NCBI GenBank assembly: GCA_965221205.1
Contig: OZ244870.1
Span: 2,852,001-2,916,000 of the forward strand
Direction: 5' to 3'
Source of the DNA: CBDFMG01 sp965221205 [NCBI: bacterium]
Lineage (GTDB): Bacteria; SM23-31
DNA: 64,000 nt
The notes below the pieces were generated by a model, which had not been told where the DNA came from, made no database searches, and worked only from the letters and a program-made list of their open reading frames with translations. Both the position numbers and the translations under genes were made by a program. Shown one piece after another: positions 5,461-58,634 of the stretch. The first letter of the stretch is position 1. Each line of letters starts with the position of its first letter.

Positions 5461-5995
5461 AAATCATCTCTTTGCTTTTAAATATGAAGTCCACATAAAC
5501 CTGCCTGAACGCCCGGTTTTCCAACCTCCAATAATATTTCAATTATTCACATTATTTCAAGCCGGGAAGTTGAATAACTTCAACCGTCAAATGAGGAAAT
5601 TTTCCTGATTCGCTGAATCCAAAACTATTGAAAATAATAAGTTGCTCTTAGTGTTTCTTGAGCAATTTGTGTCGGAACTGCTCTTATGGCTTGATACAGA
5701 ACGGTCAGGATGCAGAATATTTAAGCTTATTTCAAGATCTTTTAGGCTGATTTGTATAAGTCAGCCTTTTTATATGAAATTACCACGATTAATTTCAAGA
5801 AAGCACGAAGATCGTTCTACCCGAGAATTAAAAAGTCCTTGGAGAAACAAATTACACTCCTTATAAAATTATTCCAAAGTGTCAAAGATGTTTTGGCAAC
5901 GCGCATCACAATTCTACAAAGCATCACATTCCAACTTAAATTAAATAAATATTTTTTAAAATTAATTGATAATAATATCAAAATATACTTTATAC
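5461..5995. other. Intergenic, one terminator-like hairpin
   Basis: Low-complexity AT-rich sequence between two pseudogenes. The only structure I can support is the hairpin listed at 5744-5771. The short open frames here do not resemble proteins. Confidence 0.35.
5744..5771 (+). terminator. Rho-independent terminator-like hairpin
   Basis: AGGCTGA (5744-5750) pairs perfectly with TCAGCCT (5761-5767) across a 10-base loop and runs into a T-tract on the plus strand. No plus-strand gene lies upstream, so it may be left over from a lost gene or end an unseen RNA. Confidence 0.5.
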
Positions 5996-7446
5996 ATGAG
6001 GTGTATTACGAAAACTATGCAGGTATATATATTCAGTTTACTTTTACTGCTTATAGCAGTGTTTTCCGTATCTGCACAGGAAAAGGCCAACAAACCGGGC
6101 TTTGAACCGGTTTACTACGATGTTGTGCAGAAGCTCATGGAGTTTGAATTTGAAAATTCTGATGTTATGGAAACTGCCAACATGCTGACCAATATTTTTG
6201 GTGGACGGAATTGGAAAACACCTGCATATCGTGCAGCAGCAGAATGGGCTCGAGGCCGGCTCACCGATTTGATGAAATTACCTCAGCAGGGGATCTTGAA
6301 CAATATCGTGGAAAATTACAAGGTAGTATCATATTCAGAATGCCGATACAGGAGATCTCGCCCTATTTTGGTGTCCAAATGATGGACCGGCCAGGCACCT
6401 TTCGCCATGAAAACGGCTATCCCGTGGAGTGGCCCGGCGAACGGCTCGATGAGATGGCGAAAGTCCCCATTACTCCTCCGGTCCCGAGAGAACGTCGCAG
6501 CCGCTGTTCCAATGAATTGAGACAGCAAATTGTTGATTTTGTATTTGCCGAGGGTGCCGTGGCAATTGCAAAAACGGATCCTGTTCGTTATTTCGGATCC
6601 GTTGCCGGAACAGGCAGATACAATAAAGTAGAGAATCCATGGGATGTGGTTGCGCCCCCTCAACCCTTAGAGCTGGTTTTTGCAGTGGAACATTATAACC
6701 GAATATTGTATATTCTTGAAGAGGATATGCCAGTCGAAATGGAGATCGATGTCAAAACAACCGTTTACAGAGGTGACCCGAATGATTTTAACGTCATTGC
6801 CGAGATTCCGGGTACAGACTTGGCGCATGAAAATAGTTATAGTAGGCGGTCATCTTCAGTCTTTACCTCACGGAACCGGTGCCATAGATAACGCTGCCGG
6901 ATCAACGACTTCCATGGAGGCGGTACGCATTCTCAAGGCGATAGGTGCCAGGCCGCGACGTACTATTCGCGTTGGCCTCTGGGGTGGGCATGATGGAGGT
7001 GGATTAGCAGGCAGCCGGGCTCATGTTCGAAAACACTTTGCCGACCCGGTAACAAAGGAGTACAAAAAGGATTATGATAATCTTGTTGCGTATTTTAATC
7101 AGGATATCGGTCCCGGCATTATAAGGACTGTTTCTATCATGGGGAACGAAGAACTCCGGGGGCGATACTTACAGAATGGATAAAGCCCTTGCATAGCATT
7201 GGGATGTCACATCTTTCCACTACTGGACCGACACATGAGGCATACACTGAAGTCGGTTTGATTGGTTTTTATTTTAATCATGATGGATATGATATGCTTG
7301 ACTATATTGCCCACGTCAATATGGACACGTATGAACGCCTCTTTCCGGAAGGCATGATGCAGGCTTCGGTGGTCGTGGCAACTTTAGCGTATCATGCTGC
7401 CATGCGTGATGAAAAACTTCCCCGTGTTTGGCCTTTGCCATGGTAA
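5996..7446 (+). pseudogene. Broken M28-family zinc peptidase
   Basis: The N-terminus has a signal peptide (MRCITKTMQVYIFSLLLLL...SVSAQ; a second possible ATG is at 6017). Mature sequence then matches secreted M28 peptidases: YYDVVQKLMEFEFENSDV, PITPPVPRERRSR, DFNVIAEIPGTDL, GTGAIDNAAGSTTSMEAVR and the C-terminal THEAYTEVGLIGFYF. The reading frame changes near 6330, at an A-run near 6831 and at a G-run near 7158. A stretch after residue 110 does not match the family. Active-site positions are also lost: the usual HLDS reads HLQS (Asp to Gln), and the EE of the WGGEE motif reads HD. Lost catalysis plus three frame changes indicates a real pseudogene. Confidence 0.8.
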
Positions 7447-7645: not shown

Positions 7646-8344
7646 TTATTTCAGGATTAATAAACGGTCGAGAATATTGTACATAATATCGTTAATCTGA
7701 TGAAAGGTTTCGCTTTGTGCCGATAAAATCTGATCTTCACTTTGGACATAATCCGATTGATCTATTTCGTCTTTACAGTTTTGTACAAGCTGCCGGACGC
7801 TCGTTGCTGTTGATTCAAGGTGAAACTGAAGGCCTAGAATGCGCTCGTTGTAAAGAAACGCTTGATTTTCGCATCCATCGCTCCGTGCAAGGTGGACTGC
7901 CCCTTCTGGCAAATCAAATGTGTCGCTATGCCAATGGAATGCATTGAACTTTTTCGGCAGAAGGTCAGACAATGTAGAAAACCTTGAATTGTCAGTAAGA
8001 TTGACAGGATACCAACCTATCTCTTTATGCTTATTCCGGTAAACGGTTGAACCAAGTGCATTCGCAATAAGCTGTGCTCCCAAACAGATACCTATAATCG
8101 GTTTTCCCAATTTGACCATACTTCGAATGAACGATTTTTCCTTAACAAGCCAGGGATACTTTTCTTCCTCACAAATAAACATTGGCCCGCCCATAACGAC
8201 AAGCATGTCAATATCTTCGGGGTTTGGTACGAGATCGGATCTATAAAGTTGAGTACCTGTGAGAGTATGACCTTTAGAAGTTGACCAATGTTCAACACCT
8301 GCTGGCCCTTCAAATGGAACATGCTGGAAATAATGTATCCGCAT
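7646..8344 (-). CDS. Class I glutamine amidotransferase (GMP-synthase-like)
   Basis: A 232-residue stand-alone GATase1 domain. The nucleophile Cys is at residue 87 in GICLGAQLIA. The catalytic His and Glu lie in LGLQFHLEST, near 171-173. The oxyanion-side VVMGGPM is near residue 50. The open frame runs upstream to 8464, but family alignment begins at MRIHYFQHVP, so the start is set at 8344. Such proteins hydrolyse glutamine or gamma-glutamyl compounds to release ammonia or amine. The gene is divergent from the methylamine operon about 660 bases away. A role with gamma-glutamylmethylamide is conceivable but unproven. Confidence 0.82.
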   Translation of the reverse strand: MRIHYFQHVPFEGPAGVEHWSTSKGHTLTGTQLYRSDLVPNPEDIDMLVVMGGPMFICEEEKYPWLVKEKSFIRSMVKLGKPIIGICLGAQLIANALGSTVYRNKHKEIGWYPVNLTDNSRFSTLSDLLPKKFNAFHWHSDTFDLPEGAVHLARSDGCENQAFLYNERILGLQFHLESTATSVRQLVQNCKDEIDQSDYVQSEDQILSAQSETFHQINDIMYNILDRLLILK

Positions 8345-9001
8345 TCGCTCAGTCTCGATTATAAAAACGTTCTGTCTATACAAGGTTTTACTTTTACGAT
8401 CAGTCCATTGAGGTATATTGTGAAAAGAAAGCAATAGTCCCCTGCAATACATCTGATTGCACATCGTCAGAATATGTTAGACAATTTAGGTTAAAAACTA
8501 AGAGATTGTTTTAGTATTTCCAAGTCTTTTTTTTCATTTCCTTTTTTATAAGGGTTCAGAACAATTTGGACAGATCTGCATCAAATATTAATGTAGATGT
8601 TGGTATGTTAATTCCTAAAAAGCCGTTTTTTGCTTGAAAAAGGAAGACCCAATTGTTAAGTTGCTATTATAATTAATAAAATCCCTGTTATTCTCTTTCA
8701 GAAAATTGATATGGGAAATATCAGACCTATATATGATTTGCATTTTAAATAAGACTTTCTTATTATAAATTTACAATGTACTTATGATGATTTTGTTCAA
8801 TAGATAAAAGAACGACAATTTCTTGTATTCTTTCCTTTACAAAGAAATGGTCTCCAAATTGAATAGAACAAATTGCCTCAATAAACGAATGAAGCTCTCT
8901 TCCATTCGACAAGCAAGCTAATCTATGACCGATAGTGAATGGTACCGCTATCGCCTGACAATCAGGTTTACTCAACATAAATAAAAGGAAACTTCATTAT
9001 T
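8345..9001. other. Divergent intergenic region upstream of the mgs-mgd-gmaS operon
   Basis: 657 bases of AT-rich DNA. It must carry the promoter of the plus-strand methylamine operon and probably that of the divergent amidotransferase, but no clear -35/-10 pair or operator stands out. A minus-strand open frame at 8763-8978 (71 codons) has no ribosome binding site and no recognisable similarity. I do not call it a gene. Confidence 0.4.
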
Positions 9002-9898
9002 ATGTGCGGAATTGCCGGCTTTCTTACGAAAACGAAAAACAACTTTACACCGGTAGGAAATACAATTCTTCAGATGCTGATACCTTTAGCTGTGCGGGGT
9101 CCCGATTCTGCCGGGGTTGCACTGTATGGTCCCAAGGTGAACGAGGGAATTGTTGTGCAGATTAAACTCGGGGGGGGAAAAGAAGAAAATTTTATAGTAG
9201 ATCAGATAAAAAAAATGGGACCTGTCGGTGAGGTAAAGACAACGGCTGAATACCTCCGTATTGTGATAGATATTAAAGAAAATATTGAGTCGTTTCTAAA
9301 CCTTGTCGAATCGTTGGACGAAGGCATAGAAATTGTCAGTTTAGGCACTCAGCTTGAAGTCATAAAGCAAATAGGTTCGCCACAAAATTTGGATTCTACG
9401 TACAATATCTCCGATTTTACCGGCACACATGGTTTGGGGCATACCCGGCTTTCGACGGAGAGTCTTGTTGATCTCAGCCATTCACAGCCTTTCTGGGCAT
9501 ACGGATATCCCGATCTTGCAATTGCCCACAACGGGCATATAACGAATTATCACAAAATGCGTCAGCTTTACGAACAAAAAGGCGCCAAGTTTTACACCAA
9601 AAACGATTCCGAAGTTATCGGTATCTATCTTGCCGATAAATTGTCAAAGGGAATAGCGCTTGAAGACGTGTTGGAATCCTCACTTGGTGACTTTGACGGC
9701 TCGTTCAGCTACCTTGTATCAACGTCCAACAGTATTGGATTTGCCAAGGACCCCTTTGCGTTTAAACCTCTGCTCTTTGCCGAAACCGATGATTTTGTCG
9801 CAATTGCTACTGAAGAGGTTGCAATTCGTTCTGCTTTCCCCGGCAGTTATACAGTGCGGGAAGCTCTATCAAAGGAGACACGTATATGGCAGAGATAA
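9002..9898 (+). CDS. mgsA: N-methylglutamate synthase subunit A (class II glutamine amidotransferase; GlxB-like)
   Basis: A 298-residue Ntn-type amidotransferase. Cys2 after the initiator Met (MCGIAGF) is the N-terminal nucleophile. RGPDSAG, GHTRLSTES and AHNGHITNY are the substrate and oxyanion segments of the glutamate-synthase GATase domain. It is homologous to GlxB and to the first third of GltB. In the N-methylglutamate pathway it is thought to release the amine from gamma-glutamylmethylamide and feed it to MgsC. AAGGA lies upstream of the ATG. The end overlaps mgsB by 13 bases, so the two are translationally coupled. First gene of an eight-gene operon. Confidence 0.88.
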   Translation: MCGIAGFLTKTKNNFTPVGNTILQMLIPLAVRGPDSAGVALYGPKVNEGIVVQIKLGGGKEENFIVDQIKKMGPVGEVKTTAEYLRIVIDIKENIESFLNLVESLDEGIEIVSLGTQLEVIKQIGSPQNLDSTYNISDFTGTHGLGHTRLSTESLVDLSHSQPFWAYGYPDLAIAHNGHITNYHKMRQLYEQKGAKFYTKNDSEVIGIYLADKLSKGIALEDVLESSLGDFDGSFSYLVSTSNSIGFAKDPFAFKPLLFAETDDFVAIATEEVAIRSAFPGSYTVREALSKETRIWQR

Positions 9899-10596
9899 TC
9901 TGCAACGGTCAAAATACCCGTGACATAAATAATCATATCAAGCAGCTTATCGACCGGGGAGAAACGGACATCATTGTTAAAGGGGCTTGGGCTAAACACA
10001 ACCTTGGCGTGGCGATTATGAAGCCTGTTTCTATCACTTTTGACAGCAGTGTGGGTTATTATTGTGCCGGGATGATCGATGGGGCAACCGTAAAGATTCA
10101 TGGAAGCGCCGGATGGGGATTAGCGGAATCCATGATGAGCGGTGCGGTCATTGTCGACGGCTGTGCCGGCAATGGCGCCGCAGCAGCAATGCGCGGAGGA
10201 ACAGTCGTTATTCACAACGACACAGCAGCCCGTTTAGGTGTCTCCATGAAGAGAGGACTCGTTCTCGTTGCCGGTAACTGTGGATATATGGCCGGTTTTA
10301 TGGCGCAGAAAGGAACCATCATCGTTTGTGGCGACACAGGCGAAGCATTTGGGGATTCAATGTACGAGACCATCTGTTATGTAGGGGGGGAAATCGACCA
10401 ACTTGGAATTGATGCTGTCATTGAAGAACCGACAGATGAAGATTTTAGTTTTCTCAAATCAACCATTTCTGAGCATCTTTCTGAGAAGAGCCAACAAATA
10501 ACAGACAAAATTCAAAAATTTAAAAAAATCGTTTCCGGACGCAAACTTTGGCATTTTGATAAAAATGAGCGGAATGTCTGGCGGAAAGCGCTCTAA
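9886..10596 (+). CDS. mgsB: N-methylglutamate synthase subunit B (GltB C-terminal GXGXG domain; GlxC-like)
   Basis: A 236-residue protein consisting of the right-handed beta-helix (GXGXG) domain found at the C-terminus of glutamate synthase. Repeats are visible: HGSAGWGLAESM, VDGCAGNGAAAAMRGG, VLVAGNCGYMAGFMAQKG and GDTGEAFGDSMYE. In glutamate synthase this domain is structural and holds the other domains together. Here it is a separate subunit, as in mgsABC and glxBCD. A charged helical tail of about 45 residues follows the helix. The gene overlaps mgsA by 13 bases and is followed by a 102-base gap to mgsC. Confidence 0.87.
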   Translation: MAEIICNGQNTRDINNHIKQLIDRGETDIIVKGAWAKHNLGVAIMKPVSITFDSSVGYYCAGMIDGATVKIHGSAGWGLAESMMSGAVIVDGCAGNGAAAAMRGGTVVIHNDTAARLGVSMKRGLVLVAGNCGYMAGFMAQKGTIIVCGDTGEAFGDSMYETICYVGGEIDQLGIDAVIEEPTDEDFSFLKSTISEHLSEKSQQITDKIQKFKKIVSGRKLWHFDKNERNVWRKAL

Positions 10597-10698
10597 CGGA
10601 CACATAATCGAAGATCGTATAAAATATGAATTTTATTGCCTTGAAATCGACCGTGAGCTGTAGGGTCATTGTAATAACGTCACAAGGAGAAATCAATT

Positions 10699-12057
10699 TT
10701 GTCTAATAAAACCACCTCGAGTTATCCACCGCTCCGACAGAGTAACACCTTTCCCCCTGATGTAATGGAAGATATACAGGTCAAGTCTGAACTGGGACGA
10801 TATCGTATCCGCGGTTTTGGAACTCTCCGTCAAAGGCGATGGTCGACATTTGACGACCTTACCTTTATTCCCTGCTCTCTCACTCGCATACCCTTGGAGG
10901 GTTATCGTGAGCGTTGCGAATCAAAAACCGTTCTCGGCACCAGATTTGCAAAGAAACCGATCGAACTTGATATTCCAATAATGATCACCGGTATGAGCTG
11001 GGGGGCCCTGTCCTATAACGCGAAAGTCGCCCTCGCGAAGGGTGCCAATATTGTCGGATCTTCAAACACGACTGGTGACGGGGGAATGTTAAAATCTGAA
11101 CGGGAGCATAGTAATATCCTGATCTACGAAGTGTTGCCGTCCCGATACGGTTTCAGCACTCACGACTTGAAAGTAGCGGACGGGATCGAATTAACGATCG
11201 GACAAGGTGCTAAACCGGGGACCGGAGGGTTATTGCTTGAAACAAAAGTTCTCGAATCAATTGCCGAACAGCGGGACTTACCCGTTGGCGTCGATCAGCG
11301 CAGTCCTGCACGACATCCCGATTTTCTCGGTCCTGATGATATGATCACAAAGATCGAAGAACTGCGGGAAGCCACCGACTGGCAGGTTCCGATCTTTGTG
11401 AAAATGGGGGCGACCCGCGTATTTGACGACGTTAGATTAGCCGCAAAAGCGGGGGCGGACGTGGTTGTCGTTGATGGAATGGAGGCTGGAACCGCTGCCT
11501 CGGCCGAAATTTGTCAGGAGTATACCGGCATTCCCACGCTGGCTGCCGTCTGTGAGGCACGGGCCGCACTCGAAGATATCGGGTTATATAACGAGGTCCA
11601 AATAATTATAGCCGGCGGGATACGGAACGGTGCCGATGCGGCAAAAGCCATGGCACTCGGTGCAGATGCGATCTATATAGGTACTGCAGCGCTTATCGGG
11701 CTTAATTGTAATAAACCGATTTATGTTGAAGACTACCACAAACTTGGTACCGAGCCGTACCACTGTCATCACTGTCACACAGGTCTTTGTCCCGTCGGTA
11801 TAACAACGCAAGATCCCGAACTTATGAAACGCCTTGACATAGACGAAGGCACAGAACGTACAGCAAATCTTTTACAGGCAATGACATCTGAAATCCAGAT
11901 ATTGGCCCGGGCCTGCGGAAAAGCCGACGTGCATGATCTCGATCCCGAAGATCTTCGGGCCTTGAATGTAGAAGCATCGATGATTTGCGGCATTCCACTG
12001 GTGGGTACTAACCGGATTTTTGGTGGTGGCCCTGGATGGAAAAAGCGGGAATCATAG
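10699..12057 (+). CDS. mgsC: N-methylglutamate synthase subunit C (FMN-binding glutamate synthase domain; GlxD-like)
   Basis: A 452-residue protein with the FMN-binding TIM barrel of glutamate synthase. Motifs include ITGMSWGALSYNAK, NTTGDGGML, GQGAKPGTGG, VVVVDGMEAGTAAS, IIIAGGIRNGADAAKAMALG and the Cys cluster HCHHCHTGLCPVGI for the 3Fe-4S centre. It performs the synthase half-reaction, joining methylamine from gamma-glutamylmethylamide with 2-oxoglutarate to give N-methylglutamate. The start is TTG at 10699, preceded by AAGGAG. Length and motif order match GlxD/MgsC. The closest alternative is an ordinary ferredoxin-type glutamate synthase, but the neighbours argue against it. Confidence 0.88.
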   Translation: MSNKTTSSYPPLRQSNTFPPDVMEDIQVKSELGRYRIRGFGTLRQRRWSTFDDLTFIPCSLTRIPLEGYRERCESKTVLGTRFAKKPIELDIPIMITGMSWGALSYNAKVALAKGANIVGSSNTTGDGGMLKSEREHSNILIYEVLPSRYGFSTHDLKVADGIELTIGQGAKPGTGGLLLETKVLESIAEQRDLPVGVDQRSPARHPDFLGPDDMITKIEELREATDWQVPIFVKMGATRVFDDVRLAAKAGADVVVVDGMEAGTAASAEICQEYTGIPTLAAVCEARAALEDIGLYNEVQIIIAGGIRNGADAAKAMALGADAIYIGTAALIGLNCNKPIYVEDYHKLGTEPYHCHHCHTGLCPVGITTQDPELMKRLDIDEGTERTANLLQAMTSEIQILARACGKADVHDLDPEDLRALNVEASMICGIPLVGTNRIFGGGPGWKKRES

Positions 12058-12108
12058 CCAATAGGGCCTTATGCTCCCTGCCTGACAACAACTAAATTAT
12101 TAAATTTC

Positions 12109-13347
12109 ATGTCTCTGAAACTCTTACTTCAAGCTTTCACCAATCACAAATCTTTGCCAAAAATGTGGCATTCTCATGCGCTGAAGGATAGTTATGACGT
12201 CGTGATTAGCGGCGGAGGTGTTCATGGGCTTGCGTGTGCATATTACCTCGCAACTGAACACGGCATAACGAACGTTGCAGTCCTCGAGAAGAACTATATC
12301 GGCTCAGGCGGCAGCGGACGGAATACCGCCATTGTCCGCAGTAACTATCTTACACCTGAAGGCGCAAATTTTTACAATGAGAGTTTAAAGCTGTTTGAGA
12401 AGATGTCCGTTGATCTGGACTTTAACGTGATGTTCAGCAGGCGGGGACATATGACGCTTGCTCATAGCGATGGCGCTGTTAATACCATGAGTCGTCGAGC
12501 TCATGTCAATCAAATCGAGGGTATAGACTCGCGGCTTATCCGGCCGGATGAAATTTCCCGTCTTTGTCCTTATCTTGATATGAGCGATGAACCCCGCTAC
12601 CCTATTTTAGCCGCACTCTATCATCCACCGGGGGGAATTATCCGGCACGATGCAGTTGTCTGGGGATATGCCCACCAGGCGGACCGGCACGGTATTCACA
12701 TTCATCAAAAAACCAAGGTAACCGGCATCAATACGCTCAATGGCAAGATTACAGGAGTACAAACGAATCGCGGTGAAATTAAAACAGGGATTGTCCTCAA
12801 TGCTACCGCTGGTTGGGCATCAACAATCACAGCAATGGTTGGGATCAACCTCCCTTTGGTTACTATCCCCCTGCAAGCGTGTGTGACCGAACCGCTTAAG
12901 CCTTTCCTCGACGTGGTAATCGTGTCCGGTAGTTTACATGTTTACATTAGTCAATCGGACCGCGGAGAACTTGTGATGGGGGCAAGCGTGGACCCATTTT
13001 CTTCCTATTCGATGGCAGGTTCACTTTTATTTCTTGAAAATATAGCGGGTCACGTACTGGAACTTTTCCCGTCTTTTAGCAAAGTGCGTGTTCAGCGCCA
13101 GTGGGCCGGGATTTGCGAAATGCCTCCCGACTTTAGCCCGATCATGGGGAAGACTCCTGTGGAAGGATTTTTGGTGGATGTCGGATGGGGAACATATGGG
13201 TTCAAATCAGCTCCTATTTCAGGCAAAATGATAGCAGAACTGATCGCTACTGATAAGACTCCGGAACTGATCGCTCCTTTTCGCTTGTCACGGTTTGTTG
13301 AGAATGAACTTGTCGGAGAAAAAGGAGCGGCGTCGGTGGGTAATTAA
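12109..13347 (+). CDS. mgdA: N-methylglutamate dehydrogenase subunit A (sarcosine oxidase beta-like, SoxB)
   Basis: A 412-residue FAD-dependent oxidoreductase of the DAO/SoxB family. The dinucleotide fold VVISGGGVHGLACAYYLA is near residue 30, then YIGSGGSGRNTAIVRSNYL, the region that contacts the flavins in heterotetrameric sarcosine oxidase. The C-terminus carries PDFSPIMGKTPVEGF and VDVGWGTYGFKSAP. In the N-methylglutamate pathway this subunit oxidises N-methylglutamate. The gene lies 51 bases after mgsC and 124 bases before mgdB. Order B-D-A-G downstream is that of sox and mgd operons. Confidence 0.88.
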   Translation: MSLKLLLQAFTNHKSLPKMWHSHALKDSYDVVISGGGVHGLACAYYLATEHGITNVAVLEKNYIGSGGSGRNTAIVRSNYLTPEGANFYNESLKLFEKMSVDLDFNVMFSRRGHMTLAHSDGAVNTMSRRAHVNQIEGIDSRLIRPDEISRLCPYLDMSDEPRYPILAALYHPPGGIIRHDAVVWGYAHQADRHGIHIHQKTKVTGINTLNGKITGVQTNRGEIKTGIVLNATAGWASTITAMVGINLPLVTIPLQACVTEPLKPFLDVVIVSGSLHVYISQSDRGELVMGASVDPFSSYSMAGSLLFLENIAGHVLELFPSFSKVRVQRQWAGICEMPPDFSPIMGKTPVEGFLVDVGWGTYGFKSAPISGKMIAELIATDKTPELIAPFRLSRFVENELVGEKGAASVGN

Positions 13348-13471
13348 GTGTTTTTTTAATTTAAACACACAATTTGAGTATACAAACAATTTTAATTTGG
13401 AGATTTTTTGGCTGAATGTTTTGGCAATCATTTTATTTTCTACTAATTCAATAGTCAGCAAGGAGTAATGC

Positions 13472-13750
13472 ATGTTAATTCTAACATGTCCCAATTGCGG
13501 GGACCGGAACGTCAGTGAATTCCGTTTTGACGGTGAATATATTCCGCGCCCGGAAGACCCTTCTGCATGCAGCTATTCAGATTGGACCGATTATCTCTAT
13601 ATCCGTACCAACAGCATGAACATTCAAATTGAATGGTGGTATCATAATGCCGGTTGTGAGCTATGGTTTCTTGCTGAAAGAAACACACTGACCAACCGGG
13701 TTGTCAAGACCTATCTCTGGCAACCAAATTTCACTGTAGGAGAAGCATAA
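13472..13750 (+). CDS. mgdB: N-methylglutamate dehydrogenase subunit B (sarcosine oxidase delta-like, SoxD)
   Basis: A 92-residue SoxD protein. Zinc ligands are visible: Cys-x2-Cys in LTCPNCGDR near the N-terminus and His-x3-Cys in WWYHNAGCELWF near residue 55-60. Other family marks are SEFRFDGEY and the DWTDYLYIRTN segment. SoxD is a small structural zinc subunit of heterotetrameric sarcosine oxidase. AAGGAG precedes the ATG. The stop codon is directly followed by the TTG start of mgdC. Confidence 0.87.
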   Translation: MLILTCPNCGDRNVSEFRFDGEYIPRPEDPSACSYSDWTDYLYIRTNSMNIQIEWWYHNAGCELWFLAERNTLTNRVVKTYLWQPNFTVGEA

Positions 13751-16648
13751 TTGCAGACGGCTCTACCGGTAAAATCTCATCGTATTCCTCTGCAGCAACA
13801 AGGTGATGTTATAGATCGTTCCTCCGTGATCGCCTTTCGTTTCAACGGTAAAGATTATACCGGCTATCAAGGAGACACTATTGCTTCAGCGCTCACGGCT
13901 GCCGGGGTTCAAACTTTAAGCCGTTCCTTTAAATATCACCGGCCGCGCGGATTGCTTTGCTGTTCCGGCGATTGTCCAAATTGTCTGGTACAGGTTGACG
14001 ACGAACCGAACATTCGTGCATGCACACGGAAGATAATTCACGGAATGGATGTCCGGCCACAAAACGCATGGCCGTCACTCAAGTATGACTTCCTTTCATT
14101 GACGCAGCTTGGATCACGGCTGATGCCGGTCGGTTTTTACTATAAAACCTTTATAAAGCCCTCGTTATTATGGCCTCTTTTCGAACGAATATTACGTAAG
14201 TCTGCCGGCCTGGGAAAGGTCGACCCCAACACTCCACCAGGTGAATATGATAAACAGTATCTGCATGCCGATGTTACGGTAGTAGGCGGCGGACCGGCCG
14301 GAATAAGCGCAGCGGTATCAGCCGCAAAACAAGGAGCAAGAGTGAAAGTGTTCGACGGCGAACCGGCCCTTGGGGGTCACGCACGGTTTAAATCGAATTC
14401 GGTTTTGCATGAGCTCACAGAACCCCTGGGCCACTACGAGAATATCGATATATTTACAGAGACAACTGTCCAAGGAGTATATGAAGACAATTGGCTGTCT
14501 GCTTCCCGTGGGAATCGCCTCTTCAAAATCAGATCAAAATCTTTGGTGTTGGCTACCGGAGCAAATGAAATTCCGCTCGTCTTTGAAAATAACGATCTGC
14601 CGGGGGTGATGTTAGGGAGCGCCGTACAACGACTTCTACTCCTTTTTGGTGTCTGTCCCGGAAAAAACATCCTGATTGTAACAGCTAACGAAGGTGGATG
14701 GCGATTAGCCGGTGATCTCCAAACAGCAGGAATTACTGTGTCTGCCATTGTGGACGAACGATCCCAAGACATCTGTAATAGTTTGCTCTTAAACGAATTG
14801 GTTGCTGATACTACACCGGTCTTTTACGAGCATACAATTTTAAAAGCGGTTGGTTTGAAATCTGTGAAGAAAGCACACATAGTACGAATTGACTCCAATG
14901 GTACTATCGATTCATCGATCAATCGGTCGTTGGAATGCGATGTAATCGCCATGAGTGCCGGCTGGACTCCTGCGCTGGGATTATTTTATATGGCAGGTGG
15001 AAAAACAGAATACAACAAAGAACTATCGGAAATAGTGCCGGTATCGTGCCCGCCTCATCTTTCTATAGCAGGAAGGGCAGCAGGGATACATTCGATGGAT
15101 AAACAAATCATCCAGGGTGAGCAGGCAGGTTTGTTCGCGTTTAACTCCATAGGAGCTGAAAAAAGAGACCTTGTGTGGACAGTGCCTGACATCACCGGTG
15201 AAACGTATCGTACTTCTGCGCGCCTCAGTATACCGGGTAACAAAAAGGGGTTTGTCTGTTTCTGTGAAGATGTCAGCGACCGGGATATTGAAACGGCAAT
15301 TGCGGAGGGTTACAACAGTATTGAACTCCTCAAACGGTACAGCACCATTTCAATGGGACCATGCCAGGGGAAAATGTGTTCAATGAATACTATTCATCTT
15401 TGTGCACGAAGTAATAATCGGACCGTTGGGGAAACAGGCAAAACAACGGCGCGGCCTCCTACGGAACCCATAGCACTGGGCACTCTTGCCGGACAAAAGA
15501 TGGAACCGGTACAGGTGACCCCGCTGCATACCTGGCATGTGAACCGGGGCGCCAAAATGATGGTAGCCGGTCAATGGTTGCGTCCCGAACACTATGTTGA
15601 CCCTAAAGACGAAGTCCTTGCCGTTAATGAACGGGTTGGCCTCATTGATGTCGGTACGTTAGGTAAATTGAAACTGACAGGACCGGGTGTACCGGATTTT
15701 CTTGAACGTATTTATTTGAATAAATGGCGTAAACTCTCTGTAGGACGTGTTCGTTACGGTATGATGTGTAATGATGAAGGTATAATACTCGACGATGGTG
15801 TCTGTGCTCATATAAGTGATGAAGAATGGTATATGAGTACAACTTCATCAGGGGCATCAGGAATCTATGATTGGTTGCAATTGTGGTTACAATCAGGTTG
15901 GGGAGATGGTGTCCATCTAACAGATTTAACCGATGTATATTCTTCAATAAATATTGCCGGACCCCGGGCACGGGAAGTGCTGAAAAAGCTAACAACGTGC
16001 AATTTAGATAAAGATGAATTTCCCTACATGTCTGTTCGCTCTGCTGAAGTAGCAGGTGTCATGTCCCGAATACTGCGAATCGGATTCACCGGTGAACTCT
16101 CCTACGAGATTCACTGTCCGTCCGGTTATGCGCTGCATATCTGGGAATCATTGATGCATACCGGGGAGGAATTCGACATAATTCCTTTTGGCGTCGAAGC
16201 ACAACGAATACTGAGATTACAGAAAATATTTGTTCTTGTCGGACAGGATACCGATGCTTTGTCCGATCCGCTTTCAGCCAATATGGAATGGATCGTAAAG
16301 ATGGATAAACCTGACTTTCTCGGAAGACGTTCTTTTACACGGATACTGGATGAAGGCAGGAAACAATTACTGGTTGGATTTAAAATGGATAATCCGGGCA
16401 TTGTTCCGGACGAAGGCAGCCAGGTTGTGAGCAAAAATTCTGGTAGAAAAATGAAGATTATCGGTTGGATAAGCTCCAGTCGATTCAGTCCGTCTTTGAA
16501 TGAAGCAATCGGACTCTGTTGGCTGCCGCCGGATATAGGCGGAAAAAATGGAGCTTCCTTTACGATAAAAGTGAGTGGGAAATTAGAAACGGCACATGTT
16601 TTCCATGGCGCATTTTATGATCCGGAAGGCACAAGACAGAAGATGTAA
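13751..16648 (+). CDS. mgdC: N-methylglutamate dehydrogenase subunit C (sarcosine oxidase alpha-like, SoxA)
   Basis: A 965-residue alpha subunit. Domains in order: an N-terminal 2Fe-2S-ferredoxin-like region with RGLLCCSGDCPNCLVQV (about 75-90); an NAD-binding pyridine-nucleotide oxidoreductase fold, VTVVGGGPAGISAAVSA (about 176-192); a BFD-like cysteine site, GFVCFCEDV with GPCQGKMC; and, from about residue 590, a GcvT-like tetrahydrofolate-binding aminomethyltransferase domain. The last domain would capture the C1 unit as methylene-tetrahydrofolate. The start is TTG, directly after the mgdB stop, with GGAG inside the end of mgdB. The size matches SoxA (about 960-1000 aa). Confidence 0.9.
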   Translation: MQTALPVKSHRIPLQQQGDVIDRSSVIAFRFNGKDYTGYQGDTIASALTAAGVQTLSRSFKYHRPRGLLCCSGDCPNCLVQVDDEPNIRACTRKIIHGMDVRPQNAWPSLKYDFLSLTQLGSRLMPVGFYYKTFIKPSLLWPLFERILRKSAGLGKVDPNTPPGEYDKQYLHADVTVVGGGPAGISAAVSAAKQGARVKVFDGEPALGGHARFKSNSVLHELTEPLGHYENIDIFTETTVQGVYEDNWLSASRGNRLFKIRSKSLVLATGANEIPLVFENNDLPGVMLGSAVQRLLLLFGVCPGKNILIVTANEGGWRLAGDLQTAGITVSAIVDERSQDICNSLLLNELVADTTPVFYEHTILKAVGLKSVKKAHIVRIDSNGTIDSSINRSLECDVIAMSAGWTPALGLFYMAGGKTEYNKELSEIVPVSCPPHLSIAGRAAGIHSMDKQIIQGEQAGLFAFNSIGAEKRDLVWTVPDITGETYRTSARLSIPGNKKGFVCFCEDVSDRDIETAIAEGYNSIELLKRYSTISMGPCQGKMCSMNTIHLCARSNNRTVGETGKTTARPPTEPIALGTLAGQKMEPVQVTPLHTWHVNRGAKMMVAGQWLRPEHYVDPKDEVLAVNERVGLIDVGTLGKLKLTGPGVPDFLERIYLNKWRKLSVGRVRYGMMCNDEGIILDDGVCAHISDEEWYMSTTSSGASGIYDWLQLWLQSGWGDGVHLTDLTDVYSSINIAGPRAREVLKKLTTCNLDKDEFPYMSVRSAEVAGVMSRILRIGFTGELSYEIHCPSGYALHIWESLMHTGEEFDIIPFGVEAQRILRLQKIFVLVGQDTDALSDPLSANMEWIVKMDKPDFLGRRSFTRILDEGRKQLLVGFKMDNPGIVPDEGSQVVSKNSGRKMKIIGWISSSRFSPSLNEAIGLCWLPPDIGGKNGASFTIKVSGKLETAHVFHGAFYDPEGTRQKM

Positions 16649-16651
16649 TCT

Positions 16652-17341
16652 ATGCCCAATACACTGATAAAATCAACACCGCTTCATGCGATTTCCCGGC
16701 AATTCAATCCACACTATACTGAGCAACAGGGCTGGGAAATCCCCAAAGTTTACACCACCGTAGATGCAGAATTGAGCGCTGCCAGGCACAGAGTTGCAGT
16801 CGCCGATGCAACGCCAAACGGTAAACTAATGGTCCGGGGCAGCCAGGCTCAAGAATTCCTTAACAAGGTTATTGGTCTGCCGCTCATTGCCGTTAATACC
16901 GGAAGAGAAATCATGGGGATGAGAGTTTACCGTCTGCGAAACGATCTCTATTATATCAGCACACTACCCGGTAATGAAGCGGATATCAATAAAAAGTTAC
17001 AGGAAAAAGCGAACGAGACAGATAAATTTATTACAATTACCGATGTAACGCACGGTAGATCAGAAATTCTGATAGTAGGACCGAACAGTCAGGAACTCAT
17101 GAGCAAATTGTGTGGATTGGATTTTCACCCTTATGCTTTTCCAAATGAAACTGCAAAACAAAGCAGTTTGGCTAAAACAACTCAGTTAATCATCCGTCGG
17201 GATAATAAAAAATTACCAGCATTTTTTATTATTGGAGCGACATCTTTAGGGGAATACCTTTGGAATATTATCATCGAGGCCGGCCGTGAATGGGACCTGA
17301 TACCGATCGGCTTCGATGCATTAAACACACTGCAAGAATAA
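16652..17341 (+). CDS. mgdD: N-methylglutamate dehydrogenase subunit D (sarcosine oxidase gamma-like, SoxG)
   Basis: A 229-residue SoxG-like protein in the GcvT/SoxG fold. Recognisable parts are TPNGKLMVRGSQAQEFL, TDVTHGRSEILIVGP and the closing GREWDLIPIGFDAL. The subunit is the most divergent of the four and its assignment is helped by position, three bases after mgdC. It contributes to the folate channel of the heterotetramer. Twenty-two bases separate it from gmaS, and these include a strong AAAGGAGG. Confidence 0.83.
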   Translation: MPNTLIKSTPLHAISRQFNPHYTEQQGWEIPKVYTTVDAELSAARHRVAVADATPNGKLMVRGSQAQEFLNKVIGLPLIAVNTGREIMGMRVYRLRNDLYYISTLPGNEADINKKLQEKANETDKFITITDVTHGRSEILIVGPNSQELMSKLCGLDFHPYAFPNETAKQSSLAKTTQLIIRRDNKKLPAFFIIGATSLGEYLWNIIIEAGREWDLIPIGFDALNTLQE

Positions 17342-17363
17342 ACTGCTAAAAAAGGAGGCTAAT

Positions 17364-18697
17364 TTGACTTTAGATCAAGTTAAAGCACTTATAAAAGAGA
17401 AAGGGATTGAATATTTCCTGTGCTCTTTTGTGGAAATGAGCGGTGCTCCAAAAGCAAAAGTGGTTCCAGTGACGAATTTAGATGAAATAGCAGCGGAAGG
17501 CGCAGGTTTTGCCGGTTTCGCTGCTGGATATATGGGGCAGGGGCCACATGATCCGGACATGGCAAGCATTCCAGATTTTAAATCTTTATCAATTGTTCCT
17601 TGGCGCAAGAACATGGCATGGGTCTCCGGCAACATTCGTGTAAACGATCAATCATGGCCTTATTGTCCCCGAACCATTTTACAACAACAGTTGGAAAGAG
17701 CTAAACAGAAAGGTTATGTTTTCAACGTGGGAGTCGAGGCAGAATTTATGCTGCTGAAGCGCAATGAAGACGGCCGCTATGAGCCATGGGATTCTCTCGA
17801 TACCTTACATAAACCGTGTTATGATTTGCGAGCTTTGCACCGTAATCTCGATATCATGACGACACTGATCAAAATATGCAGGAATTGGGTTGGTCTCCTT
17901 ATGCCAATGACCACGAAGACGCCAACTGCCAGTTTGAAATTAACTGGGTCTATTCCGACGCTTTAACATCTGCAGACCGGCTTTCTTTTTATAAGTGGAT
18001 GGTGAAAACCGTTGCTGAAGAACATGGCCTGTTGGCAACCTTTATGCCGAAACCATTTTCCAACCTGACCGGAAATGGCCTTCATCTGCATATGAGCCTC
18101 TGGGACATTCAAAATCAAGAAAATCTTTTTCTCAATGAGGAAGATGAAAATGGTTTGTCACAGCTTGCTTATTCTTTTATGGGAGGCATTCTTAAGCATG
18201 CTAAAGCATCGGCCGCAGTGACAAACCCCCTTGTCAACAGTTATAAACGTCTGGTCAGGGGCGCTCCAAAATCGGGAGCAACGTGGGCTCCGGTTTATGT
18301 CACGTATGGCGGTAGTAATCGAACGCAGATGATACGTATTCCTTCGCCGGGCCGGATTGAAAACAGATCTGTAGACGGTGCTGCGAATCCTTATCTCGTG
18401 ATGGCAGTGGTGCTTGCCGCCGGATTGGATGGCATCGAAAACAAAATCAATCCGGGGAATCGTAATGACGACAATCTCTATGAAGTCTCAGAAGATGAAC
18501 TTCGACGGCGCGGTATAAACTTTTTACCCAGATCTCTTAAAGAAGCGATAGATTATTTAGAAGCCGATGAGCTTATTATTCAGGCGCTTGGACCCGAATA
18601 TGAAAAATATTACGTTGAAGTCAAAAATGACGAGTGGCGCGAATACCACAATACGGTGAGTGAATGGGAAGTGGATAATTACCTCGGAAATTACTAA
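17364..18697 (+). CDS. gmaS: Gamma-glutamylmethylamide synthetase (GlnT-type glutamine synthetase), one frameshift
   Basis: A type-III-like glutamine synthetase, about 444 residues when repaired. It starts at TTG after AAAGGAGG. Motifs: EMSGAPKAKVVP near the N-terminus, NVGVEAEFMLLKR, NDHEDANCQFEIN, NGLHLHMSLWD, and PSPGRIENRSVDGAANPYL. GmaS makes gamma-glutamylmethylamide from glutamate, methylamine and ATP. It begins the pathway and closes this operon. The frame changes near 17870 at ATCAAAATATG. One more A would restore a single 445-codon frame, and homology continues across the break. I therefore suspect a homopolymer error rather than a dead gene. It could also be read as a glutamine synthetase paralogue, but the operon favours GmaS. 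Confidence 0.85.
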
Positions 18698-21278: not shown

Positions 21279-23596
21279 TTAAAGCTTTAAGATATCTGAA
21301 ACTCTTATATCCATGGAAGAACTCCCTATCATGATGTTGAAATCACCGGGTTCAACAACCCAATCTGAAGCAGATTCATCGTAAAATGCAAATGTACTTT
21401 TATCGAGGAAAAATGTTACTGTTTTTGTCTCTCCTGGCGCAAGGGTGATCCTTCCGAAACTCTTGAGCTCTTTTATTGGACGAACAACTGAAGAATATTC
21501 ATCGTGAATGTACACTTGTACAACTTCATCCCCTTCTCTGTTACCAGTATTTGTAATATCAACCGTCACTTCAGCTGATGTAGGAGAAATCGCACTAATC
21601 TTTAAATTTGAATATTCAAAGGTTGTATAACTTAAACCGTGTCCGAACGGGAATAACGGACCAGCCTGATTATCACGGTAATTCCAAATAAAATCCCTCA
21701 TGTTCTGTCCTCTTGCTCCGCCTGGAGTTTTATAGTAATATGCTGGTATCTGTCCGGTGTTTCTCGGAATCGATACCGGGAGTTTCCCTCCGGGATTTAT
21801 TTCTCCGAATATCGCTTCTGCAACTGCTGTACCGGTTTCCTGGCCAAGATACCATCCATCAAGTATTGCAGGAATATTATCTGCTATCCATGGGATGGCA
21901 AGCGGCCGTCCATGAAGGAGCATTACAACAACCGGAGTGCCGGTTGCGTACACTGCTTTGACAAGATCCTGTTGATATCCCGTAAGATGAATAGTGTCCG
22001 AATCTTCTCCTTCTTTCGCTGTCAGTTCGTTGCCGCCTATCACCAGTATCGCAACATCCGAACTGTTGGCAAGCTCGACTGCATCATCAATGTTTTCTCG
22101 GGACATGTCTGTCAGACTGCATCCTTCCTTATAGAGGACTTCAGCGTCATTTCCAACATAGTCTTTAATGCCATCAAGTACAGTGACAAAATGGCGAGTT
22201 TTTGGTGTGGAATATGCTCCGAGTATTTCGACATCTGCGTTCGGTCCGATGACAGCTATTTTTTAAGCCTGTTTTTATCAAGCGGTAGCAAATCACCCTC
22301 ATTTTTCAAAAGTGTAATCGCCTTTTTTGCTACTTCGAGTGCCAGTTGATCATGCTCTTTATTAAATAAAACATCCCTCCAGTTTTCGCGCGGGACGGCA
22401 AGACGGTGTAGTGTATTGAACCATTCATTCAATACCACATCAAGACCACGTACTGCTTTCGTATTTTCGACCTCCTGATACTCCGGATAACCCTCGATTG
22501 GACCAAATCCTTCGTCACCAGATACCCAGTGGTCCTGCCAAGGGTAAATAGTTTCATTGTTGTCTAATAAGCCGATCTTGAATTTAGTCCTCAAGACATT
22601 TCTTACCGCTCTATCGAGAATTTCGACAGGGATAGACCCGTTTTCTATTCCTTCTAACAGTGGAGCACCATAAACCCGATCATCCCACGGCCGGTCAATC
22701 GCCATTTCCTGGTCCACACCAGCCTCAAGTGCCAGTCGGGCTGCATCAATAAAGTTCTCGGCAACGAGCTTATTCGTATACAGCCTGCTAATATCCATAT
22801 TGTCGCTGATGACGTGTCCGTCAAAACCATACGTATCTCTGAGAACGGTCTGAAGAATGTATTTATTTGCGTGGCATGGGATACCATTCAAACTATGATG
22901 AGCGGCCATAATACAACCAACACCGGCTTCTTCAACAACCGCTTTATAAGGCGGCAGGAAAACTTCATGAAGCCTCCGAATAGACACATCCATGGCAGTT
23001 GCATTAATTCCCCCAATTGGCTGCCCATCAGCCACAAAATGCTTGGCTGTCGCAATAATATGGTTCTCGTCAAACCGTTCTTCACCCCGGCCCTGCAGAC
23101 CATGCACAAAACCGACAGAGATTCTTGAGACATGATACGGATCTTCACCAAAACACTCTTCCGATCTCCCCCATCTTGGATCAATCAACACACTTACCAT
23201 TGGCTCATAACCATGCTGAACACCCAGTGCACGGGATTCCTTTGCAACTACGGTTCCCATTCTTTCGATCAGATCGGGATCCCACGTACTCCCCATTGCA
23301 AGCGGAACAGGAAAACTCGTTGCATACGCTAACGTGACTCCATGGATCATCGATGATCCCTTGAGATTCGGGATTCCCAATCTTATATTAGCATTGGGAT
23401 ATTGATCGGCAAGTTGAACAAGCTTTTCCTTGATTGTCATTCGAGACATAAGATCATTTATTCGAGCTTCAACAGGTAAATCAGGATTTTTATAGGGGGG
23501 AATTACCTGAGCAAGAACAATATTTATAAATGATAGAACGAATCCTGTAATGGCGCACAAAAAAGCGGTAATAACTACACGTTTCCTAAATCCCAT
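21279..23596 (-). CDS. Secreted glycoside hydrolase family 3 (beta-glucosidase type), one frameshift
   Basis: Repaired length is about 770 residues. The N-terminal signal peptide (GFRKRVVITAFLCAITGF...) supports a start at 23596, though the frame runs up to 23644. The GH3 N-domain includes GSTWDPDLIERMG, ATAKHFVADG and the nucleophile Asp in GHVISDNMDIS. The C-domain includes KIAVIGPNAD, ILVIGGNELT and FPFGHGLSYTTF. The C-terminus is a fibronectin-III-like domain (NREGDEVVQVYI). The frame breaks near 22260 at CTTAAAAAATAG. One extra A gives an uninterrupted frame through 22107-22255. It probably cleaves terminal beta-glucosides or xylosides in the periplasm. Confidence 0.87.
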
Positions 23597-23873
23597 GATT
23601 AAAATTCTTTCATTCTTGTCAGGTATAGACTTTTGAATCTCCAATGTAAATAAAGAATCGATTAAGAACTAAGCATATTCCCTATTGTTCGGTCTAACAA
23701 TTGGGAAACTCGTTTAGTCTTTTAGAAATAAATCCATTGACAGTAATAGCTAAAAAATAATTTTTATTCTACTATTGGAATCGGAAATTAAAATATGTAA
23801 TCAAGACAAAAAAGGTTTTAGTGGAATTAAAAGGTGAGTTTTTGATATCAATCGGCAGTAATACAATAGATGA

Positions 23874-33560: not shown

Positions 33561-34492
33561 TCAGTTATCTGCGCTATCTATTTCTTTTGACAGACCACTT
33601 CGAACTTCAGGAAGAGATAAAATTATATCTGATACTGATATTTGACCGGACTTGGTTTTAAGTGTCTCTGGTGATGTAACTGTCAAATCATCTCTAATTC
33701 CAAAAAATATCACACGATGCCTTGCCTGAGGAATTCCATACCTTTCGCATTGAATTGTATAGTCAATATGATTAAATATTGGTTTTCCAAATAGATTTTT
33801 TCCCGGATTCTTGACAAAAGAGTGGATAGTATAATTATCGCCCCGTAAAGACTGTCTCTGTTTCCCATTTAATCTTGAAATTGCAGCCTCTGGATTTTTT
33901 AGGTCATCAAGAATCTTTTCAAATATTGACTGACCATTGATTTTTGATGAGAGCATTCCTTTTACATTTTCTAGAACAAATACAGGAGGGGCATGAATAT
34001 TCAAAATACGTAAAAATTCTCTGTACAGATAAATACGAGGATCATCAGTTTTTATCCCACCACGGCGGGACCGCCCAACAAGCGAAAAAACTTGACAAGG
34101 TGGTCCTCCAGTCAGCACCCAGACAGATGAGTTTCTGACTGCATTCTTGATTTTTTCATCAACTATTTCCGGAGAAACTTCACCAAGAGTTACATTCTAG
34201 GCTTCATTCTCAGCTCTTCCAGCTTCTTTTTCAAATTTAGAATACAGCTCTTTCGGTAAAATATCTCCCCTGAGGAGCGAATAATACTCTGCCGGAATAT
34301 TATCACGGTTAAACTGACTGAAAAACTGCGAAGTTTCAGTGTTTTATGAGCCATCGGATCCTTCTCTACGGCAAGATACACTTTAAAGCATGAATTTTTA
34401 TCACTGCATTCAGCCATGTTAAAACCTTCTCCAAGGCCTCCTGGCCCGGCAAAAAGGTCTATGACTGGAATAGTTATTGCCTTATTCATCAT
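33561..34492 (-). pseudogene. Dead DNA (cytosine-5) methyltransferase
   Basis: The N-terminal part reads IPVIDLFAGPGGLGEGFN (SAM-binding motif I) and VYLAVEKDPMAHKTLKLR. The frame then shifts near 34336. The next segment (NRDNIPAEYYSLLRGDILP) contains an in-frame TAG at the Trp of ENEAWN, near 34200. From about 34130 it continues VWVLTGGPPCQVFSLVGRS, with the catalytic Cys of PPCQ intact, then VFVLENVKGML and YGIPQARHRVIFFGIR. A TGA ends it at about 310 residues, where homologues continue with Trp. One frameshift, an internal stop and a missing target-recognition and C-terminal part make this a pseudogene. No restriction endonuclease is nearby. Confidence 0.82.
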
Positions 34493-57447: not shown

Positions 57448-58052
57448 TCCCGCGGTTTCAGTGCCAAGAATATTTCCATAGACACGCTCAAATAGCTCAC
57501 CGTAAGTATCACCCTGCATGCTGCGGAGCTCTAATGTCATTGGAAAGCAACTTGCCGGATCAAGATACATCGCTTTAAATTTATTAACTGCATCGATCCG
57601 CTCCTTGATCATCAGTGCAATCGCCTGACTGCCGGGTGATTCCGGAATTTGTCTATCTATTCCCTGTTCACTAACGAAAAGAGTCCTGCAATCAACACTT
57701 TTTTTGAAATGAGGGTTGATTTTTCTATATTTTGAATCACTGGCAAATTTGACTTTTGGCTCGGAAGTTCGGGATTCAGTCTGAGTTGGAACTTCCTGAA
57801 CAGTCGGTTGAATTGTTTGCCTGTTATCTTCTGTTTCTTCAAAATTAAAGCTATTTATATGGTAGCAATTCTGACGTTTGCTTCCGGGTCTTTTTTACTC
57901 AAATCCTCGATTTCTTGACTAAATTCAAGTCCCCCTAACACGCCGGCAATTTTGATTGTCACCTCACGGGCTCCCGCATCAGCAACATGCACATTATCCC
58001 ATAACATTTTGAGTATATCCTTTTTTCTGCTCTGGCATATGTGATACAGCAA
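57445..58052 (-). pseudogene. Fragment with HEAT-like repeat and unknown C-terminus
   Basis: The part from about 58040 reads ILKMLWDNVHVADAGAREVT and IKIAGVLGGLEFSQEIEDLS, like HEAT/PBS helical repeats. It stops near 57856. Deleting two bases of a short AT repeat there joins it to a 135-codon frame that contains KFKAMYLDPASCFPMTLELR and ends at TGA 57445-57447. The N-terminus is fused out of frame to the FtsW-like fragment. I do not recognise the C-terminal part. Confidence 0.45.
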
Positions 58053-58470
58053 TAATAAATCCTATCATAATGGAAAATGTAATAAAAGCAAACTCACCTT
58101 TACTTAAAAATGGCAGCACTACTCCAATTAACGGTATAATATTCAAGACACCTCCAATATTAATAAATATCTGGCAGCAGAACATGATCGCAAGAGCAGA
58201 AACAGCAAGAAATTCAAATCTGTTAGAACAGGAAAATGCGATGCGAACGCCCGTTAAAATTATGTTCAAATATAGTAAAAAAATACCCAAAGTACCAATA
58301 AAACCTAACTCTTCTGCGGTAGCAGCAAACACAAAGTCCGATTGTACAAGTGGAACCAAGTTGGGATTACCGAGTCCAAGTCCCGTTCCTCCGAGTCCTC
58401 CTGCATTAAGAGCAAAGAATGCATTGGCTGTCTGGGAACTTCTGTCCCACCACTCGGCAGATGGAAATCC
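57994..58470 (-). pseudogene. C-terminal fragment of an FtsW/RodA/SpoVE family protein
   Basis: Reading from about 58465, WWDRSSQTANAFFALNAGGL is followed, after a frame change, by VPLVQSDFVFAATAEELGF and three hydrophobic helices, then NIGGVLNIIPLIGVVLPFLS. These are the conserved extracellular loop and last TM segments of SEDS glycosyltransferases. The conserved FLSYGGSS reads FLSKGEFAF, so the end is degraded. The N-terminal two thirds is missing: at about 58470-58495 the sequence passes into GC-rich foreign DNA. Confidence 0.65.
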
Positions 58471-58634
58471 TGTTATGCGTGTTCACTGTATCGATCATTG
58501 CTGGGCCGGTCACCCCGCGCAGTGCTAAAGCGTGGCTCGCCGGACAGAAATTCCGGCTGACGACCGGGGCCACGTGATCGTCTACCCATCCGTGCCTCTC
58601 CGAGAGTCTCAAGAAAAGGGGATTACATACATGA

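What the first reader, a model, noticed from the sequence alone, without database searches (positions are those of the whole stretch)
9002..18697. Complete N-methylglutamate (methylamine) pathway operon outside Proteobacteria
Eight genes in one direction, mgsABC-mgdABCD-gmaS, give every enzyme of the indirect methylamine pathway, in a genome whose other genes point to the FCB superphylum. Seen: motifs and gene order (GlxBCD-like, SoxBDAG-like, GlnT-like). Known: this set defines the NMG pathway in methylotrophs and in bacteria using methylamine as nitrogen source. Inference: this organism uses methylated amines for nitrogen or carbon. No methanol or formaldehyde oxidation genes are in the window, so nitrogen use is more likely.
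Basis: partly seen in the sequence, partly recalled or inferred. Interest (0 to 1): 0.72.

Follow-up and report, generated by a model that had tools for sequence, protein, structure and literature searches.

The report
Methylamine-use operon from uncultured bacterium
An uncultured bacterium carries the known gene set for using methylamine; the set seems to have passed between distant phyla, and one of its enzymes keeps likely iron-sulfur binding sites that some well-known versions have lost.

Summary
Eight co-directional genes, mgsABC-mgdABCD-gmaS (9002-18697, +), encode the N-methylglutamate (NMG) pathway, but gmaS is split by a frameshift near 17871-17876; 11 of 11 relatives inspected are open there. 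Two other genes in the window are broken too, so sequence error is at least as likely as decay. Being outside Proteobacteria is not new: Mycobacterium and Binatota are in print. What the tools added: (1) the nearest operon, same order, 62-85% identical, lies in a genome of the Poribacteria phylum, while MetK puts the window outside that phylum, so the operon probably crossed phyla; (2) it is a mosaic: MgsC/GmaS and MgdA/MgdC have conflicting trees; (3) its MgsC keeps the three cysteines aligned with the [3Fe-4S] ligands of glutamate synthase, plus a fourth. All four are present in 70 of 97 MgsC examined; 24 of the other 27 form one, mainly proteobacterial, clade that includes Aminobacter. This bears on an open question in print: what reduces NMG synthase. 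The 'FCB' label could not be tested, and nitrogen versus carbon use stays open.

The parts
9002..9898 (+). mgsA, class-II glutamine amidotransferase subunit of N-methylglutamate synthase; starts MCGI
   Evidence: PF13522 2.9e-17
9886..10596 (+). mgsB, GXGXG (GltB C-terminal-like) subunit
   Evidence: PF01493 4.8e-13
10699..12057 (+). mgsC, FMN-binding glutamate synthase-like subunit, TTG start
   Evidence: PF01645 1.1e-92
11707..11790 (+). codons of C337 (11707), C356 (11764), C359 (11773) and C364 (11788) of MgsC, proposed Fe-S ligands
12109..13347 (+). mgdA (SoxB-like), FAD subunit of N-methylglutamate dehydrogenase
   Evidence: TIGR01373 1.8e-149
13472..13750 (+). mgdB (SoxD-like)
   Evidence: PF04267 3.5e-28
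13751..16648 (+). mgdC (SoxA-like) with 2Fe-2S, FAD, A3 and folate-binding domains, TTG start
16652..17341 (+). mgdD (SoxG-like)
   Evidence: PF01571 1.3e-21, PF04268 3.1e-6
17364..18697 (+). gmaS, gamma-glutamylmethylamide synthetase, TTG start, broken by a frameshift
   Evidence: (C part: best solved match 9qur, glutamate--methylamine ligase, 3.9e-87)
17871..17876 (+). site of the gmaS frameshift
   Evidence: 11 of 11 relatives open at this place

Best explanation
A full N-methylglutamate pathway operon, acquired by transfer between phyla. GmaS joins methylamine to glutamate at the cost of ATP; MgsABC, a three-piece relative of glutamate synthase, makes N-methylglutamate from the product; MgdABCD oxidises N-methylglutamate back to glutamate and passes the methyl carbon to tetrahydrofolate. 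These steps are inferred from family knowledge and from published Methyloversatilis and Methylobacterium genetics; none was measured here. Shown here: gene content, conservation of the operon, its sister relation to an operon in a Poribacteria-phylum genome, the conflicting trees of its mgs/gmaS and mgd parts, and the cluster-type cysteines of MgsC. In this sequence gmaS carries a frameshift: either a sequence error, or a recent lesion of the first step.
For: Eight expected families in order. Same order and set in L119/G031, 62-85% identical. GmaS C part matches glutamate--methylamine ligase 9qur best among solved chains. The window pairs with G031 in MgsC (94), MgdA (97*) and MgdC (100*) trees and lies with it and Poribacteria rows in the GmaS tree (six rows, 98*). 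MetK rejects pairing the window with G031 (p-AU 0.00018) and, less strongly, the window inside the Poribacteria group (p 0.029). mgsC in a Methyloversatilis strain is essential for growth on methylamine (PMC5023235, passages).
Against: gmaS is broken as sequenced. No NCBIfam model reaches its cut-off. Sox-type trees mix functions: Aminobacter Mgd (NMG operon) sits in the same clade as sets next to betaine or sarcosine genes, and Mesorhizobium L133 (beside serine dehydratase and purU) sits on the window's side. Transfer rests on one marker, with groups named after the NMG trees were seen. No activity was measured and the host genome is not held.
Confidence: 0.82

Rival explanations
1. The sox-like block is a catabolic sarcosine oxidase and gmaS a glutamine synthetase, so the cluster is not a methylamine pathway.
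For: Library names are 'sarcosine oxidase' and 'type III glutamate-ammonia ligase'; MgdA aligns over its length with sarcosine oxidase beta 1vrq; one likely sarcosine set (L133) falls on the same side of the MgdC tree.
Against: Nearest MgdA and MgdC rows come from genomes that also carry mgsC; mgsABC, mgd and gmaS are kept together in two gene orders in several phyla; no glyA, serine dehydratase or purU beside the operon among the flanking window ORFs annotated.
Confidence: 0.08
2. The host belongs to the Poribacteria and inherited the operon vertically.
For: The nearest operon is in that phylum, with the same order; only MetK was tested, and p 0.029 for the whole group is not strong.
Against: Pairing the window with G031 on MetK is rejected (p 0.00018); 11 of 11 sampled MetK of that phylum form a clade without the window (95/90); only 9 of 84 genomes of the phylum have mgsC at E <= 1e-100, many of them incomplete assemblies.
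Confidence: 0.12
3. The operon is decaying: gmaS is a real pseudogene, and at most MgsABC and MgdABCD still act, perhaps for nitrogen only.
For: Frameshift in gmaS; a GH3 gene split between two frames and an M28 gene present only as a fragment. In Methylobacterium extorquens DM4 GmaS is needed for carbon but not for nitrogen use of methylamine (PMC6237917, passage citing Gruffaz 2014).
Against: Codon positions of both gmaS parts show the same pattern of constraint as the other seven genes; the breaks elsewhere could equally be sequence errors.
Confidence: 0.3

Closest known systems
NMG operon mgsABC-gmaS-mgdABCD of Aminobacter (plasmids pMET1, L003; pAA01, L157)
   Same: Same eight genes, all in one direction; MgsC 54% identical
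   Different: gmaS lies between mgsC and mgdA there and at the end here; Aminobacter MgsC lacks the cluster cysteines (YDDWHEGKDPAG); its Mgd falls in the sarcosine-oxidase-type clade
Operon in Poribacteria-phylum genome G031 (L119)
   Same: Identical gene order, 62-85% protein identity, cluster cysteines
   Different: A gene that reads like a sulfotransferase lies between mgdA and mgdB, and gmaS is one open frame
NMG genes of Methyloversatilis (L083; strain FAM5 in print)
   Same: Cysteine-type MgsC; mgsC and mgdD needed for growth on methylamine in FAM5 (PMC5023235, passages)
   Different: Order mgdABC-gmaS-mgsABC in L083; MgsC 55% identical
Glutamate synthase alpha subunit, GltB (1ea0, 7mfm)
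   Same: Fold of the FMN domain (Foldseek 1.3e-19 for 7mfm and 1.6e-16 for 1ea0, TMq 0.72 and 0.68); three cysteines aligned with Cys1102, 1108, 1113 (their role as [3Fe-4S] ligands is recalled)
   Different: Amidotransferase, FMN and GXGXG parts are separate proteins; longer spacing after the first cysteine and a fourth cysteine; no GltD-like gene in the operon
Heterotetrameric sarcosine oxidase SoxBDAG (1vrq, 2gag)
   Same: All four subunits and domains
   Different: Sits inside an mgs-gmaS operon rather than beside glycine or serine genes

Membership tests
N-methylglutamate pathway operon | mgsABC: amidotransferase + GXGXG + FMN glutamate synthase domains as three genes | tested here: met
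N-methylglutamate pathway operon | four-subunit mgdABCD next to mgs genes | tested here: met
N-methylglutamate pathway operon | gmaS of the glutamate-methylamine ligase type, in one open frame | tested here: inconclusive
   family and best solved match agree, tree with operon-borne GmaS; but the frame is broken
N-methylglutamate pathway operon | growth on methylamine, or enzyme activities | not testable with these tools
   no experiment possible
Catabolic sarcosine oxidase | groups with SoxBDAG sets that lie beside glycine, serine or betaine genes | tested here: inconclusive
   L131, L132, L134, L135 are in another clade (100*), but L133 is on the window's side and Aminobacter Mgd is in the other clade
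Iron-sulfur flavoenzyme of glutamate synthase type (MgsC) | three cysteines aligned with the [3Fe-4S] ligands of GltB | tested here: met
Iron-sulfur flavoenzyme of glutamate synthase type (MgsC) | a bound cluster and an electron donor | not testable with these tools
   no coordinates from the model; no classical 4Fe-4S ferredoxin pattern within 6 kb before and 8 kb after the start of mgsC in 97 locus rows, where the locus held that much
FCB superphylum host | marker genes group with FCB genomes | not testable with these tools
   no FCB genome reached; MetK speaks only against Poribacteria

The most novel reading that the evidence does not exclude
N-methylglutamate synthase is in origin an iron-sulfur flavoenzyme that works as a 'methylamine GOGAT': outside electrons pass through a [3Fe-4S] or [4Fe-4S] cluster in MgsC to FMN and reduce 2-oxoglutarate plus methylamine to N-methylglutamate. 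One mainly proteobacterial clade, Aminobacter included, lost the cluster, so that form would be the derived one and may run redox-neutrally (glutamate + methylamine to N-methylglutamate + ammonia) or take electrons in another way. Five marine alphaproteobacterial genomes carry both classes side by side.
Probability: 0.45. Interest if true: 0.6.

Novelty: new variant of a known kind. Interest (0 to 1): 0.42.

Why it matters
A 2018 paper says that the redox cofactor of N-methylglutamate synthase is unknown and names NADH, NADPH or reduced ferredoxin as candidates (PMC6237917, passages). The cysteine pattern sorts the enzyme into two classes and makes that question directly testable. The spread of a distinct operon type over Poribacteria, Acidobacteriota, Planctomycetota, Chloroflexota and an unnamed marine phylum, with transfer and mixing of its parts, also widens the list of organisms that may use methylamine.

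Tried and rejected
Own-genome searches for other glutamine synthetases and C1 genes: no genome held. Programmed frameshifting in gmaS: thought unlikely, as I saw no slippery heptamer and 11 of 11 relatives are open at the place (L124 has a break of its own near the start of gmaS and another in mgsC). Host in Poribacteria: MetK disagrees. Electron-donor gene near mgsC: no classical 4Fe-4S ferredoxin pattern in 97 locus rows (a regular expression only, [2Fe-2S] ferredoxins and reductases were not sought, and some loci are short). Formaldehyde-activating enzyme: 1 of 17 genomes with related operons, the planctomycete G003 (control rang in 2 of 14 named genomes). TMAO demethylase NF053776: 0 of 17 over its cut-off, but 0 of 14 controls were over it either, so the test shows little. 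The MgsC model gave no coordinates for cysteine distances.

Limits. Tree rows are not independent. Fragments and duplicates L086-L118 were left out. The paralogue L027_15349p is but was dropped before the cysteine counts. Alignment A3 was cut to 37 rows, mostly of the cysteine class. The tests used 36 chosen loci plus the window (30-32 rows a tree), identity cut-offs of 45% (30% for MgdC), quick trees without the mixture model, and groups named after the full trees were seen; the DAGB set had support 63 for MgdC there, against 100* for that set plus L043. The MetK fork of the 11 Poribacteria-phylum rows has support 95/90 in the drawn tree (the group table prints 100/99 because it leaves ungrouped rows out).
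Full report
OBSERVATION. The window holds eight genes on the + strand from 9002 to 18697 in the order mgsA, mgsB, mgsC, mgdA (soxB-like), mgdB (soxD), mgdC (soxA), mgdD (soxG), gmaS. NCBIfam gives the expected best names for the sox-like genes and gmaS, but no match reaches its curated cut-off. MgsA starts MCGI. MgdA keeps the His (180, my count) that aligns with His172 of 1vrq chain B (its role in covalent FMN binding is recalled). gmaS is two frames, 17364-17966 and 17876-18697, matching positions 2-165 and 167-434 of TIGR03105. The shift lies near 17871-17876; 11 of 11 relatives inspected are open there.

IS THE BREAK REAL? A GH3 glycosidase is split between two frames (N domain to position 315 of 316, C domain from position 60 of 200; 21279-23644) and an M28 peptidase is left as a fragment among overlapping frames (5966-7183). 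Such breaks suggest sequence error, but decay cannot be excluded without reads. All eight genes, both gmaS parts included, differ from the nearest operon mainly at third codon positions (48-61% identity, against 76-95% at the first two), so all were under selection for most of their history.

RELATIVES. Nearest by MgsC: two Poribacteria 87 and 84%, a groundwater Planctomycetota genome 82%, three Acidobacteriota 78-79%, a marine bin of unnamed phylum 75%, two Chloroflexota 71-72%. In the phylum of the first Poribacteria genome 9 of 84 genomes match mgsC at E <= 1e-100; in the phylum of the marine bin 3 of 16. Four Poribacteria-phylum loci inspected (L006, L007, L123, L124) have mgsABC and gmaS together without mgd, and in six genomes (G001, G002, G025-G028) mgdC lies on another contig or far away. 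One genome, G031, has the window's exact order at 62-85% identity. The planctomycete L008, three Acidobacteriota, two genomes of the marine phylum and two Chloroflexota have mgsABC, then mgdB-C-D-A ('DAGB' in sox letters), then gmaS; MgdD was not detected in L013.

PHYLOGENY. In MgsC, MgdA and MgdC trees the window is sister to G031 (94, 97*, 100*); in the GmaS tree it lies in a six-row set with G031 and four other Poribacteria-phylum rows (98*), G031 being nearest by path. MetK tells another story: 11 sampled genomes of that phylum form a clade without the window (95/90); holding the window with them costs 11.1 log units (p-AU 0.029), pairing it with G031 costs 56 (p 0.00018). MetK identity to the 80 of 84 genomes of the phylum with a match is 58-66%, much as to the other groups tried (56-65%). 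I read this as transfer of the operon between phyla, direction unknown. It rests on one marker, and no FCB genome was in the tree.

MOSAIC. For MgsC and GmaS, window and Poribacteria rows go with Acidobacteriota and L008 (98*, 99*), and a DAGB clade without them is rejected (p 0.0002 and 8e-69; the second is inflated because the Chloroflexota L013 and L014 carry another GmaS type). For MgdA and MgdC the reverse holds: window and Poribacteria rows with Acidobacteriota and L008 are rejected (p 6e-5 and 1e-8). With the two gene orders and the separate mgd of most Poribacteria genomes inspected, this says that the mgd block and the mgs-gmaS block had separate histories before they met. Groups were chosen after the trees were seen.

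THE MgsC CYSTEINES. The HMMER alignment puts C337, C359 and C364 on Cys1102, 1108 and 1113 of 1ea0, recalled as the [3Fe-4S] ligands; C356 is extra. Of 97 MgsC rows, 70 have all four, window included; in 19 none of C356/C359/C364 is Cys, though 6 of these keep C337; 8 are partial. On a tree built without these columns, 24 of the 27 non-complete rows form one clade (99*): proteobacterial rows and plasmids plus one genome titled Exiguobacterium; the other three are Actinomycetota with C-M-C. Aminobacter aminovorans pAA01 is of the cysteine-less class. Methyloversatilis L083 is of the cysteine class; in FAM5, of that genus, deleting mgsC abolishes growth on methylamine (PMC5023235, passages). If FAM5 has the L083 type, which I did not check, cysteine-type MgsC serves this pathway. 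Five loci (L028, L032, L035, L036, L070) hold one mgsC of each class. The AlphaFold model (mean pLDDT 76; blocks 331-370 at 82-93) matches glutamate synthases in the first seven places.

WHAT IS KNOWN. The NMG pathway outside Proteobacteria is in print for Mycobacterium (PMC5023230, passages) and Binatota (PMC8262859, one passage); PMC5023228 (passages) treats methylotrophic Proteobacteria. Two readings of the synthase reaction are in print: glutamate plus methylamine with release of ammonia (PMC8292978, passages; [quoted passage not shown] PMC8097209 (passages) describes the [3Fe-4S] cluster of glutamate synthase as a link in its electron chain and does not mention methylglutamate. A search for N-methylglutamate with 3Fe-4S gave 0 papers; two searches listed 15 of 405 and 8 of 2,575 papers, and I looked into three of these. 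The library is open-access only, so this is a weak negative. N-methylglutamate with Marinimicrobia gave 0 papers; Poribacteria with methylamine gave 11 (listing), of which I saw passages of PMC9999580, with no mention of glutamate.

FUNCTION AND USE. Best reading: methylamine is caught by GmaS, carried by MgsABC and oxidised by MgdABCD, giving usable nitrogen and a C1 unit on tetrahydrofolate. Carbon or nitrogen use is open: the larger window ORFs that I annotated hold no methanol, formaldehyde, formate or folate C1 gene (not every ORF was scanned), and Fae is absent from 16 of 17 genomes with related operons.

Noticed in passing
window 21279-23644, -: Beta-glucosidase-like GH3 gene split between two frames.
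   Followed up: partly
window 5966-7183, +: M28 peptidase present only as a fragment among overlapping frames.
   Followed up: partly
window 33561-34118, -: Fragment of a DNA cytosine methyltransferase, matching positions 63-130 of 329.
   Followed up: no
window 10699, 13751, 17364: TTG starts are frequent in the operon: mgsC, mgdC and gmaS as listed.
   Followed up: no
window 7646-8464, -: Class-I glutamine amidotransferase-like gene next to the operon on the other strand; could act on gamma-glutamyl compounds, untested. No match to it appeared in the 15 related loci scanned.
   Followed up: partly
window 58001-60000: G+C rises to 53% against about 36-49% in the rest of the window.
   Followed up: no
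L028, L032, L035, L036, L070, L071: Marine alphaproteobacterial loci with two mgsABC sets; in five of the six one MgsC has the four cysteines and the other lacks them.
   Followed up: partly
L017, L019, L020: Cysteine-type mgsABC of two Cyanobacteria and a Bacillota genome with no gmaS and no close mgd found in the DNA held; a related but different use is possible.
   Followed up: no
L119 9436-10044, -: A gene that reads like a sulfotransferase sits inside the G031 operon between mgdA and mgdB (name is mine, no family search).
   Followed up: no
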